Shown here: positions 23,850 to 28,443 of the stretch, piece after piece
Layout: each line of letters starts with the position of its first letter
Position numbering within the stretch: the first letter of the stretch is position 1
NCBI GenBank assembly: GCA_018668695.1
Contig: JABJBS010000319.1
Location: 1-44,990, forward strand
DNA length: 44,990 nucleotides
DNA from: Deltaproteobacteria bacterium
GTDB lineage: Bacteria; Myxococcota; XYA12-FULL-58-9; JABJBS01
Reading direction: 5' to 3'
Program-made: the position numbers and the translations under genes
The notes under the pieces: model-generated
Told to the model about the DNA's origin: nothing
The model's input: the letters and a program-made list of their open reading frames with translations, nothing else
Databases searched by the model: none

Positions 23850-25643
23850 ATGGCAATTCGTATTTCTTTAATCCTTCCGATTGCTTTTTTGAGCCTAACA
23901 CTCGCAGCATGCAGCGTTGACAATCCACTCTCAGCAATTCCTGATTGTGCTGGCGTTTCAGGCGGCGACGCAGTCGTTGATGAATGCGGTGTGTGCAACG
24001 GCGACAATACGCAATGCGCCGACTGCGCGGGTGTCCCATACGGAGATGCTCTCGCGGACGAATGCGGGATTTGTGATAACGACGCTACCAATGATTGCAT
24101 TCAAGACTGCTCAGAAACATGGGGCGGCGATGCTGTGATCGATGATTGCGGCGTGTGTGACGGTGACAATACCACCTGCGCCGACTGCGCAGGCGTCCCA
24201 AATGGCGATTCTATGCTGGACGAATGTGGCGTATGCGACAACGACTCTACGAACGATTGCACTGAAGACTGCACCGGAACATGGGGCGGAGATGCTATCC
24301 TCGATGAATGCGACGTGTGCGAAGGCGACAGCTCAACCTGTGCCGACTGTGCTGGCGTTGCGAATGGTGACTCCGTCATCGATGAATGTGGCGTCTGCGA
24401 TAACGACGCTACGAACGATTGCACTGAAGACTGCACCGGAACATGGGGCGGAGATGCCATCCTCGACGAATGCGGCGTGTGTGAAGGAGACGGCTCAACC
24501 TGTGGCAATGTGTCATTTGGACCTGTTGCCGATGCACACGTAACCAGTGGTAGCGCCAACAGCAACTACGGACTACTTGATGAACTCATTGTGGACCGCG
24601 GCGCCAACGAAACCTATTTACGGTTCGACCTAGGAGCCAATATTCCAGCCGGTGCTTATATAGAGAGTGTTAACTTCAAAACCACCGCACACACAGGATT
24701 TGCCTGGGGCGGCGACGGCAACGTTTATACTTACCTCGTAGACGATGACACCTGGGCAGAAGAAGGCATCACCTGGAACAACCGCCCGGCGGTATCGGGC
24801 ACAAGCCTGGGCAGCTGGTGGCTCTGGTATGATTACAGCGACAACACGATTCGAACAGGTGAGCACTCCACCGAAGAAATGGCCACAACTGTTCAAGCAG
24901 AACTGGATAACGACGGCCTTATCAGTGTCCGTCTTCACTCCCCTGGCTATCGTACCAATTACCACTCGCGTGAGTTTGCGGATGCAAGCATGCGCCCTCG
25001 GCTTGAAGTTGCATATCTTGACTGCGCCGGTATTCCCAACGGCGATGCATTTGTTGATACCTGCGACGACTGTGTTGGCGGTACCACAGGCCTTGAGGCG
25101 GGCGACTGCTCCGAGCCGGAAGAGACGGGAATTGTAGTCGGCGGTGGCACAACCACACTGGCGCAACAAGGCAGCTGCGGATATTCCAGCAGCACTATCA
25201 GTTGCCCTGCGGGTTTTGTGGCCGTTGGTTACCAAGGCCAAACCGGCGATTGGTTTGACCACGTAAAACTGATCTGCCAAGAGCTGCTCGCCGATGGTTC
25301 TTTGGGTGGCATCACAACCACTTCTGCTAACGGTTACAGCAGCGGCGGCAGCAATGTTGGTCCTTACTACTGCTCTGCAGGCCACGTTATGGTCGGCGGT
25401 CAGGTCCGTGCTGGTGACCACTTAGATTATGTGCGTGGACGCTGCATGAGTATTGCAGACGTCGCAGCAGGAAGTACCGTTGGGTACACCTCCTCCGCTG
25501 ATGGAATGGGTAACGCAAGCGGCGGCGGCGATTACGGTGATCAGCTCTGCCCTGCCGGTCAAGCCATCACGGGTATGATTGGCGGCAATGCGCAGTATGC
25601 GTGTCGAATCAGCTGGATTTGCAGCGATATTGCCAACAACTAG
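23850..25643 (+). CDS. large Cys-repeat lipoprotein with DNRLRE (CBM96-like) domain
   Basis: A 597-residue surface lipoprotein: signal ILPIAFLSLTLAACS with lipobox LAAC, and a GGGG ribosome site. Residues about 30-220 are tandem Cys/Asp repeats of the type DCAGVPNGD...DECGVCDND, likely calcium-binding and disulfide-bonded like thrombospondin type-3 repeats. About 222-390 is a DNRLRE/CBM96-like beta-sandwich (ADAHVTSG, TYLRFDLGANIPAGAYIESV, DTWAEEGITWNNRP). One more Cys repeat follows (DCAGIPNGDAFVDTCDDC). The end (about 435-597) has three related units with CPAGF, CSAGH and CPAGQ, which look like sugar- or ligand-binding modules. It stands alone, with a terminator after it. A role in adhesion or polysaccharide binding is inferred. 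Confidence 0.85.
   Translation: MAIRISLILPIAFLSLTLAACSVDNPLSAIPDCAGVSGGDAVVDECGVCNGDNTQCADCAGVPYGDALADECGICDNDATNDCIQDCSETWGGDAVIDDCGVCDGDNTTCADCAGVPNGDSMLDECGVCDNDSTNDCTEDCTGTWGGDAILDECDVCEGDSSTCADCAGVANGDSVIDECGVCDNDATNDCTEDCTGTWGGDAILDECGVCEGDGSTCGNVSFGPVADAHVTSGSANSNYGLLDELIVDRGANETYLRFDLGANIPAGAYIESVNFKTTAHTGFAWGGDGNVYTYLVDDDTWAEEGITWNNRPAVSGTSLGSWWLWYDYSDNTIRTGEHSTEEMATTVQAELDNDGLISVRLHSPGYRTNYHSREFADASMRPRLEVAYLDCAGIPNGDAFVDTCDDCVGGTTGLEAGDCSEPEETGIVVGGGTTTLAQQGSCGYSSSTISCPAGFVAVGYQGQTGDWFDHVKLICQELLADGSLGGITTTSANGYSSGGSNVGPYYCSAGHVMVGGQVRAGDHLDYVRGRCMSIADVAAGSTVGYTSSADGMGNASGGGDYGDQLCPAGQAITGMIGGNAQYACRISWICSDIANN
24021..24506 (+). repeat. three tandem 162-base repeats inside the Cys-repeat lipoprotein gene
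   Basis: Units begin with GACTGC/GACTGT at 24021, 24183 and 24345, an exact period of 162 bases (54 codons). Units two and three are nearly identical over long runs (for example the ACGAACGATTGC block at 24249 and 24411), while unit one has drifted. This points to recent duplication or gene conversion, so copy number may vary between strains. Confidence 0.85.
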
Positions 25644-26866: not shown

Positions 26867-27646
26867 TTAGGATGCAGCTTTGGCTGCCGGTGGCATTCCG
26901 CCCTTGATAGTGTCAGAAGAGCACTCCGTATCACTGTCGGAATAATCGACCTGATGCACAACATTTGGTGTAACCGCATAAGCCCAAAGCGGATCTGCAA
27001 GCGCAAAACGCTCGAGAATGTCAGCTCGGATATGCTGATGAAACATCGCAGGCAAAAACTCATCCACAGGAATCAAATCTTGCTCATAACCAACGCTTAA
27101 AAGCTTTTCTGCACCACTTCGAGTGACCATGTAGCCATGGGTACAATAACTAAAGCCCGGCACACTTATGAAGTTTCGAATCTGAAACGGATCGGGCGTC
27201 ATAGCATTACGTCCCAGATAAAGAAGGTCCCACTTGCCTTCCTCGCGAGCATGCCGACAAAAGGTCAGTGCACGTTCAAACAAATATTTAAAATGTCTAT
27301 CGAAACCCGCGTCATCTTCCAGGATTAAGACTTCGTCGAGTTCTTCCTCAACAACCTTCTTCCAGATATTCACATGACTCAGCGCACAGCCTATTTCACC
27401 CTGACGAATTTCACGCTGGTAAAAATGCACTGGTAAATCCGAGTTCTTCCAAGCATCCCAGACACCGTAGTTACCCTGTTCCATGAATTTATCATCGATT
27501 TGGCTGCCATCTACCGCTGGAAAAAACTCAAATTTCTCCCGTACCTCAGGTGGAAGGTCCAATGCTTCAAGGCGGTTTTCCATCTCAGCACGTCGGTCGC
27601 TTCGACGAGGTAGATTAACAATAAATACTTTATCCAATTGCTTCAC
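26867..27646 (-). CDS. GT25 glycosyltransferase resembling collagen galactosyltransferase
   Basis: A 259-residue cytoplasmic glycosyltransferase of family GT25. FIVNLPRRSDRRAEM (about 8-22), AVDG (about 44-47), GEIGCALSHVNIWKKVV (about 83-99), the metal-binding LEDD (about 109-112), WDLLYLGRN (about 139-147) and PVDEFLPAMF (about 193-202) are all present. The last two blocks and an acidic SDSDTE near the end (about 236-241) look more like the animal procollagen galactosyltransferases than the LPS-type bacterial GT25 enzymes, judging from memory of those sequences. The start is GTG at 27646; its first base falls in the preceding TAG stop, so it is coupled to the oxygenase gene. Donor and acceptor are unknown. 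Confidence 0.88.
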   Translation of the reverse strand: MKQLDKVFIVNLPRRSDRRAEMENRLEALDLPPEVREKFEFFPAVDGSQIDDKFMEQGNYGVWDAWKNSDLPVHFYQREIRQGEIGCALSHVNIWKKVVEEELDEVLILEDDAGFDRHFKYLFERALTFCRHAREEGKWDLLYLGRNAMTPDPFQIRNFISVPGFSYCTHGYMVTRSGAEKLLSVGYEQDLIPVDEFLPAMFHQHIRADILERFALADPLWAYAVTPNVVHQVDYSDSDTECSSDTIKGGMPPAAKAAS

Positions 27647-28443
27647 TATGAGTCGCTTCCTGTATGGCCCATAGCATCGAGGCCAAATAAATCGCTTAAA
27701 TGCATACCTTTAAACTCAGGTAAAATACTGAGGGTCGAACCGATTGGGTCTGCGCCTTCACCCTTAAGCGTGAAGTAAAATACGGGGCGCGCTACTTGAG
27801 AAGCATTTTGACCACCGCAGTGAAATAGACGCGAATTCATAATGACCAGAGACCCACACTCGCCGTGCAGAGGAACAGCCTCACTGATTTGTATGGTTTC
27901 AGGGAATTCTAGATGTGTCTGAGGCCAAGCCAGAAGTGGTCCCATCGTTAAATCTTGATCTCGAAGTGGGATAAAAACAGAATACATCTCAGCCACATCC
28001 CCGGTGTGACGAACATCAGGATGCGGAGGTTGTCGTTTGGCTCCGGGATAACTGACCATGCAAGAAAACTCGACGACCTCGGGATTATCCGTCAAACGGT
28101 CTCCAAGGATTTCACCAACAAGCGGTACCGCCTGCGCGAAAACCTGTTCCGCAAAGCCTGCATACAATAGTGGCACATCACTGCGATGTTCCGGCTCAGC
28201 TATTTTGACAGGAACAGTTTCACGTAGTCGGCTGATGGATAGAAGCAGGCGCTCGCATGTGTTGCGGTCACAAAAACCAGGAATCAAAACCACGCCTTGC
28301 TCTTCAAGCATCCGGGACGCTGCTCCGCTTTCGACATCAGCTTCGCTCGCAACGTAATGCTTACGCCGCTCAAGCATCCTCACGAGAACTGGGTCTATGT
28401 CAGATGACTCTCGTTTCAAAATCGCGCTCTTTCCTCGGACCAC
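27646..28443 (-). CDS. phytanoyl-CoA-hydroxylase-like 2-oxoglutarate/Fe(II) oxygenase
   Basis: A 265-residue soluble dioxygenase. The iron ligands appear as HPD (His 141, Asp 143) and His 208 in FHCGGQN, with Arg 219 (ARPVFYF) placed to bind 2-oxoglutarate. The layout matches the PhyH family: an N-terminal GVVLIPGFCDRNTCERLL, then the double-stranded helix core with EMYSVFIPLRDQDLTMGPLLAWPQTH. The start is GTG at 28443 with GAGG upstream. It overlaps the GT25 start by one base. Substrate unknown; the pairing with a collagen-type GT25 suggests hydroxylation of a protein or glycan that is then glycosylated. Confidence 0.85.
   Translation of the reverse strand: MVRGKSAILKRESSDIDPVLVRMLERRKHYVASEADVESGAASRMLEEQGVVLIPGFCDRNTCERLLLSISRLRETVPVKIAEPEHRSDVPLLYAGFAEQVFAQAVPLVGEILGDRLTDNPEVVEFSCMVSYPGAKRQPPHPDVRHTGDVAEMYSVFIPLRDQDLTMGPLLAWPQTHLEFPETIQISEAVPLHGECGSLVIMNSRLFHCGGQNASQVARPVFYFTLKGEGADPIGSTLSILPEFKGMHLSDLFGLDAMGHTGSDS

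What the first reader, a model, noticed from the sequence alone, without database searches (positions are those of the whole stretch)
26867..28443. A coupled 2-oxoglutarate oxygenase and collagen-type GT25 glycosyltransferase
The two genes overlap by one base and are therefore made together. The GT25 protein carries WDLLYLGRN, PVDEFLPAMF and an acidic SDSDTE block that I associate with animal procollagen galactosyltransferases more than with bacterial LPS enzymes. The partner is an intact PhyH-like dioxygenase (His 141, Asp 143, His 208, Arg 219). Hydroxylation followed by sugar transfer is the logic of collagen modification, where the two activities sit in separate or fused enzymes. A bacterial two-gene version, perhaps acting on a surface protein, would be new.
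Basis: partly seen in the sequence, partly recalled or inferred. Interest (0 to 1): 0.62.

Follow-up and report, generated by a model that had tools for sequence, protein, structure and literature searches.

The report
Collagen-type sugar transferase with hydroxylase partner
A bacterium carries, in two overlapping genes, a sugar-transferring enzyme whose nearest solved relative is the human enzyme that puts galactose on collagen and an oxygenase that could first add the hydroxyl group; relatives in phages and bacteria show the same pairing next to collagen-like proteins, but in this genome the oxygenase is of another family and no collagen-like target with lysines was found.

Summary
Window 27646-28443(-) is an intact PhyH-family 2-oxoglutarate oxygenase. 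Window 26867-27646(-) is a GT25 glycosyltransferase whose start shares one base with the oxygenase stop. The GT25 belongs with human collagen galactosyltransferase COLGALT1, not with LPS GT25 enzymes: PDB match 7.8e-33 versus 3.6e-9 for bacterial GT25; predicted fold on the COLGALT1 catalytic domain at Z 30, rmsd 1.9; tree split 100/99. Placing it inside the LPS group is rejected; a basal position between the groups is not.

Sampled COLGALT-type GT25s (mostly phage, some bacterial) are fused to, or within 3 kb of, a 2OG oxygenase in 40 of 51 loci, against 0 of 62 for the LPS type. Twenty of the 51 carry collagen-like Gly-X-Y proteins, with lysine at Y and almost never at X.

The window's pair differs: its oxygenase is PhyH-type, not lysyl-hydroxylase-type; two COLGALT activity motifs are changed; no PLOD glycosyltransferase was found; and the genome's Gly-X-Y repeats have no lysine. 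The pair was not found in 57 relatives. Best reading: hydroxylate-then-glycosylate, acceptor probably not collagen. Verdict: new variant of a known kind.

The parts
26867..27646 (-). COLGALT-type GT25 glycosyltransferase, 259 aa, single GT-A domain
   Evidence: Pfam PF01755 6.3e-29; COLGALT1 7.8e-33; AF2 pLDDT 93.5, Z 30.0 and rmsd 1.9 over 233 residues to the COLGALT1 catalytic domain
27646..28443 (-). PhyH-family Fe(II)/2OG oxygenase, 265 aa (possible TTG start at 28419)
   Evidence: PF05721 5.9e-11; H141, D143, H208 invariant, R219 shared; best PDB match kanamycin B dioxygenase 0.0012
27646..27648 (-). TAG stop of PhyH, whose G is the first base of the GTG start of GT25
   Evidence: sequence
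27656..27661 (-). Shine-Dalgarno-like AGGAAG, 9 nt before the GT25 GTG
   Evidence: sequence, (inferred role)
27311..27319 (-). Glu110-Asp111-Asp112, aligned with the EDD metal site of COLGALT1
   Evidence: alignment; EDD role from PMC13382579
27206..27232 (-). WDLLYLGRN; D140 aligns with COLGALT1 D463, D461 is replaced by Lys138
   Evidence: alignment; mutant data PMC3244457
27056..27070 (-). PVDEF motif of the COLGALT-type clade
   Evidence: 45 of 51 clade A against 3 of 62 clade B
26924..26941 (-). SDSDTE, counterpart of SDTE in the COLGALT1 C-terminal loop
   Evidence: the loop 562-580 binds UDP according to PMC13382579
28473..29843 (-). NDH-2-like NADH dehydrogenase, 29 bp upstream on the same strand; possible first gene of the transcript, link to function unknown
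   Evidence: Pfam Pyr_redox_2 1e-46, NDH2_C; no promoter- or terminator-like excess nearby

Best explanation
A two-gene hydroxylate-then-glycosylate unit. The PhyH-type oxygenase (Fe(II), 2-oxoglutarate, O2) would put a hydroxyl on an acceptor, and the translationally coupled, single-domain COLGALT-type GT25 would transfer a hexose from a UDP-sugar to that hydroxyl, using Mn2+ held by E110-D111-D112. Neither protein has an obvious signal peptide, so the reaction would be cytoplasmic, before any export. Shown: gene anatomy, intact active-site residues, family of the GT25, and the clade-wide link of such GT25s with 2OG oxygenases. Inferred: the order of the two steps, the sugar (Gal or Glc), and that both act on one acceptor. 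The acceptor is unknown, and collagen-like lysine is unlikely in this genome; a non-collagen protein or peptide side chain is my first guess, a small molecule the second.
For: GT25 matches COLGALT1 (7.8e-33) far better than bacterial GT25 structures (3.6e-9); model on the COLGALT1 catalytic domain 337-578, Z 30.0, rmsd 1.9, against Z 21 for mimivirus R655 and 17 for a bacterial beta-1,4-GalT. Tree: COLGALT1, window and phage/bacterial relatives against LPS-type GT25s, 100/99 support; window inside the Pasteurellaceae/Aeromonas LPS group rejected, p-AU 6e-6, and inside the 27-row LPS-type core, p 0.013. 2OG oxygenase fused or within 3 kb: 40 of 51 COLGALT-type loci against 0 of 62 LPS-type (Fisher 8e-21, relatedness not corrected); among loci from plasmid or genome collections alone 8 of 8. 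LPS-type neighbours are GT2, GT9 and O-antigen ligase genes. One-base overlap with a good Shine-Dalgarno.
Against: The partner is PhyH, whose characterised members (own knowledge) mostly act on small molecules; none of the other COLGALT-type loci held has a PhyH. The pair was not found in 57 relatives. The acceptor is not identified. Iterative oxygenase profiles were seeded from COLGALT-type loci, which could favour that side; the Pfam check of 85 LPS-type neighbours showed no 2OG family in two or more members, but single-member families beyond the first 25 were not printed. The association sample was found with a profile that contained two fused cyanophage proteins (A1), so counts are not a random sample. 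PhyH structure could not be modelled (pLDDT 33). The base of clade A is unresolved: window as a deep branch between the two clades is not rejected (p-AU 0.28).
Confidence: 0.5

Rival explanations
1. Two independent enzymes that happen to share a transcript: PhyH hydroxylates a small molecule or lipid, and the GT25 glycosylates a surface glycan or an unmodified protein.
For: PhyH closest solved relative is kanamycin B dioxygenase, weakly (0.0012); NDH-2 29 bp upstream suggests mixed operon content; no PhyH next to other COLGALT-type GT25s in the loci held; 11 of 51 COLGALT-type loci show no oxygenase within 3 kb.
Against: One-base overlap of the two genes; the strong oxygenase association of this GT25 clade.
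Confidence: 0.3
2. A true collagen-type system: hydroxylation of lysine in a collagen-like protein followed by O-galactosylation or O-glucosylation, as in animals and mimivirus.
For: COLGALT-type GT25; collagen-like proteins near such GT25s in 20 of 51 loci, lysine at Y and almost never at X; the genome has Gly-X-Y proteins.
Against: No lysine in the Gly-X-Y repeats of the genome; oxygenase has no match to lysyl hydroxylases at E up to 1, whereas the Aquimarina oxygenase domain matches LH3 at 6e-13; D461 and RMQV of COLGALT1 not kept; no GT_PLOD match in the genome (which had no positive control).
Confidence: 0.07
3. An LPS or capsule GT25 with an unrelated oxygenase.
For: Pfam names the family LPS biosynthesis; the enzymes share a fold (Z 17).
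Against: Tree and AU tests, motifs, no LPS or capsule genes in the window among the ORFs annotated.
Confidence: 0.05

Closest known systems
COLGALT1/GLT25D1 (human procollagen galactosyltransferase)
   Same: GT25 catalytic (GalT-C) domain: 34% identity over 233 residues in the structural alignment, Z 30; EDD metal site, W-D-L-x-Y-x-G-R, PVDEF, SDTE
   Different: Window protein has only the catalytic domain, no GalT-N; D461 is Lys and RMQV is not kept; partner is PhyH, not LH3
Mimivirus L230 (fused GT25-like glucosyltransferase and lysyl hydroxylase; PMC9614988)
   Same: A COLGALT-related transferase working with a 2OG hydroxylase, outside animals
   Different: L230 is one fused protein with a PLOD-type hydroxylase and acts on viral collagen; here two genes and a PhyH
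Phage and bacterial COLGALT-type GT25 with PLOD-type oxygenase (cyanophages S-8S55 and S-PRM1, Aquimarina sp. RZ0, Aureibacter plasmid pAT5, Streptomyces kronopolitis), seen here
   Same: Same GT25 clade, same pairing with a 2OG oxygenase
   Different: Their oxygenases are of the OGFOD2/LH type and often sit beside Gly-X-Y proteins; the window's is PhyH with none nearby
Kanamycin B dioxygenase KanJ (PhyH family)
   Same: H-x-D...H motif and PhyH fold family, weak sequence match (0.0012)
   Different: KanJ acts on an aminoglycoside; about 20% identity level only; no evidence of the same substrate

Membership tests
COLGALT (collagen hydroxylysine galactosyltransferase) | GalT-C catalytic domain of the COLGALT type | tested here: met
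COLGALT (collagen hydroxylysine galactosyltransferase) | EDD metal site in the catalytic domain | tested here: met
   E110-D111-D112 aligned; role from PMC13382579
COLGALT (collagen hydroxylysine galactosyltransferase) | Two-domain architecture with GalT-N | tested here: not met
   259 aa, only the C-terminal domain is covered
COLGALT (collagen hydroxylysine galactosyltransferase) | D461-x-D463 and the RMQV stretch needed for activity (PMC3244457) | tested here: not met
   K138-W-D140 and A148-M-T-P in the alignment; D463 kept, D461 and RMQV not
COLGALT (collagen hydroxylysine galactosyltransferase) | Transfer of galactose to hydroxylysine | not testable with these tools
   needs an enzyme assay
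LPS/capsule GT25 | Position inside the LPS-type clade of the tree | tested here: not met
   100/99 split; p-AU 6e-6 and 0.013 for two placements inside; basal position not rejected
PhyH oxygenases | PF05721 match over the curated cut-off and H-x-D...H iron site | tested here: met
   43.5 bits against 22; H141, D143, H208 invariant
PLOD/lysyl hydroxylase | Sequence match to the LH catalytic domain | tested here: not met
   no LH chain at E up to 1
Collagen-type hydroxylysine glycosylation system | Collagen-like substrate with Lys at Y in the same genome | tested here: not met
   nine PF01391 matches in the genome; no Lys in the repeats of eight or more triplets examined. One hit, L022, was not resolved to an ORF
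Collagen-type hydroxylysine glycosylation system | GT_PLOD glucosyltransferase domain in the genome | tested here: inconclusive
   no match, but no control genome rang

The most novel reading that the evidence does not exclude
COLGALT-type GT25s with 2OG oxygenases are a widespread prokaryotic and phage hydroxylate-then-glycosylate protein modification, ancestral to or exchanged with the animal collagen pathway, and this genome carries a version in which a PhyH protein has taken over the hydroxylase role on a non-collagen protein.
Probability: 0.25. Interest if true: 0.75.

Novelty: new variant of a known kind. Interest (0 to 1): 0.5.

Why it matters
If the two enzymes act in sequence, a bacterium uses the chemical logic of collagen modification on another target, which would give a small, soluble, cytoplasmic model of it. 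The comparative result is of wider use: COLGALT-type GT25s in phages and bacteria can be told from LPS GT25s by motif and by their oxygenase neighbours, so annotation as LPS biosynthesis protein is misleading for them, and the origin of animal collagen glycosylation becomes testable with prokaryotic and phage sequences.

Tried and rejected
GT25 as LPS enzyme: rejected by tree, AU tests and motifs. Window basal between the clades: not rejected. Single-protein scans of genome contigs and viral contigs found no close relative of the GT25, nor of PhyH in viral contigs; the two-sequence PhyH profile gave none and a nine-sequence PhyH profile had no stretch conserved enough to search with. PhyH in plasmids and phages: no match. 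PhyH in eight genomes with COLGALT-type loci: no match, without a positive control. AlphaFold of PhyH without an alignment failed (pLDDT 33), so no fold search was made with it. Downstream of NDH-2 orthologues in two order-mates there is no PhyH-GT25. The nearest PhyH homologue found (L006) lies in a locus without a GT25. G+C of the GT25 gene is 0.465 against 0.502 for the window, among the lowest of the 26 genes measured but not decisive for transfer. Literature searches in the held library found collagen glycosylation outside animals for mimivirus L230 but no paper on bacterial or phage COLGALT/PLOD cassettes; most subscription papers are not held.

Full report
Anatomy. Two minus-strand genes lie at 27646-28443 (PhyH, 265 aa) and 26867-27646 (GT25, 259 aa). 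The TAG of the first and the GTG of the second share base 27646; AGGAAG precedes the GTG by 9 nt. An NDH-2-like gene ends 29 bp upstream on the same strand, and a PF10023 aminopeptidase converges on the GT25 with one base between the stop codons. PhyH has an alternative TTG start at 28419 preceded by GAGGAAAG. The iron-site residues H141, D143 and H208 are invariant among nine PhyH proteins, and R219 is shared with the nearest homologue found.

What the GT25 is. By sequence its best solved relatives are COLGALT1 chains at 7.8e-33, then mimivirus R655 at 2e-9 and bacterial GT25 at 3.6e-9. The AlphaFold model (27 sequences, pLDDT 93.5) lies on COLGALT1 residues 337-578, the GalT-C domain, at Z 30.0, rmsd 1.9 over 233 residues and 34% identity; R655 gives Z 21 and a bacterial beta-1,4-galactosyltransferase Z 17. 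GalT-C is the catalytic domain, with an EDD metal site and a loop at 562-580 that holds UDP (PMC13382579). The window protein keeps EDD (110-112), PVDEF and an SDTE block; the Aquimarina homologue aligns its SDTE with that of COLGALT1.

Tree. In a 115-row tree the COLGALT-type group (53 rows, with COLGALT1 and the window) separates from LPS-type GT25s at SH-aLRT 99; in a careful 68-row tree the split has 100/99 and is in all 200 bootstrap trees counted. Forcing the window into the Pasteurellaceae/Aeromonas LPS group costs 74 log units (p-AU 6e-6), and into the 27-row LPS-type core 26 units (p 0.013). Forcing it onto the branch between the groups costs 3.6 units and is not rejected (p 0.28), so it may be a deep branch.

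Neighbourhood survey. I took the loci found with the GT25 profile A1 and a few plasmid and phage records, thinned at 75% identity, and asked for 2OG oxygenases in the same ORF or within 3 kb and for Gly-X-Y runs of eight or more triplets in the stretch held. COLGALT-type: oxygenase in 40 of 51, Gly-X-Y in 20 of 51. LPS-type: 0 of 62 and 0 of 62 (Fisher 8e-21 and 1e-8, not corrected for relatedness). All 8 COLGALT-type loci from the plasmid and genome collections have an oxygenase; some of these are MAG contigs and the Aureibacter plasmid looks phage-like, so phage origin is possible. LPS-type neighbours are glycosyltransferases and O-antigen ligase; no 2OG family matched two or more of 85. Limits: the oxygenase profiles were seeded from the COLGALT-type side, two of four A1 members were fused phage proteins, and loci differ in length.

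What the relatives look like. Cyanophage S-8S55 has a tail-fibre gene with G-x-K repeats, then two oxygenases, then one protein with a GT25, a PLOD glycosyltransferase domain (4.5e-48) and a C-terminal oxygenase region. Aquimarina fuses a COLGALT1-like GT25 (2.4e-28) to an LH3-like domain (6e-13). Streptomyces kronopolitis has a Gly-X-Y protein, a GT_PLOD-oxygenase protein and a GT25. In the 20 loci with Gly-X-Y proteins, lysine is at Y in up to 62% of triplets and at X in 0 to 1%, the rule of animal collagen.

What is different in the window. The oxygenase is PhyH, whose nearest solved relative is kanamycin B dioxygenase at 0.0012, with no lysyl hydroxylase at E up to 1; none of the other COLGALT-type loci held has a PhyH. 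D461 of COLGALT1 is Lys138 and RMQV is AMTP; in GLT25D1 the double mutant D461A-D463A is inactive, and both features are absent from the inactive paralogue CEECAM1 (PMC3244457). The genome gives nine collagen-profile matches, and the six proteins examined with eight or more Gly-X-Y triplets have no lysine in them. No GT_PLOD match was found, without a positive control. The genome has one GT25 and two further PhyH proteins, on other contigs.

Distribution. Of 57 relatives the GT25 search rang only weakly in two and the PhyH search only weakly in one, never as a pair; in the phylum search of the GT25 alone, ten other genomes rang, best 1.2e-10. No genome of the same family or genus was held. NDH-2 orthologues in two order-mates are not followed by the pair. 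The pair is therefore sporadic, by transfer or by loss.

Conclusion. The GT25 is a single-domain COLGALT-type enzyme, and a hydroxylate-then-glycosylate unit is the best reading (0.5). That PhyH and GT25 share an acceptor is inferred, from overlap and from the habit of the clade. The collagen-specific version is unlikely in this genome (0.07).

Noticed in passing
L018 (Synechococcus phage S-8S55), L019 (S-PRM1): Collagen-like tail-fibre gene followed by two 2OG oxygenases and one protein with COLGALT-type GT25, PLOD glycosyltransferase domain and an oxygenase region: a possible phage collagen-modification cassette. No paper on it found in the library held.
   Followed up: partly
L031:2987-6603 (Streptomyces kronopolitis): Gly-X-Y protein, GT_PLOD plus 2OG oxygenase protein, and COLGALT-type GT25 in one stretch; resembles LH3 plus COLGALT1 in a bacterium.
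   Followed up: partly
20 COLGALT-type loci with Gly-X-Y proteins: Lysine at Y in 0 to 62% of triplets and at X in 0 to 1%, as at collagen hydroxylation sites; bacterial collagens in general were not compared.
   Followed up: partly
L030:5306-8150 (Labilithrix sp. MAG): Divergent P4H-like oxygenase, COLGALT-type GT25 with an extra C-terminal stretch, and a JmjC-like protein side by side; perhaps a peptide-modifying cluster.
   Followed up: no
L016 (Aureibacter tunicatorum plasmid pAT5): Oxygenase ORF and GT25 after a long tail-fibre-like protein with a short Gly-X-Y run; the plasmid may be a phage-plasmid.
   Followed up: no
L110, L114 (viral contigs): GT4-GT25-oxygenase and GT4-GT25-GT9 fusion proteins beside proteins with long GSSGTSG-type repeats, suggesting Ser/Thr acceptors for some members.
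   Followed up: no
window 23850-25643: Putative lipoprotein with repeated DECGVCxGD cysteine motifs and a CBM96/DNRLRE domain; possible surface protein near the pair.
   Followed up: no
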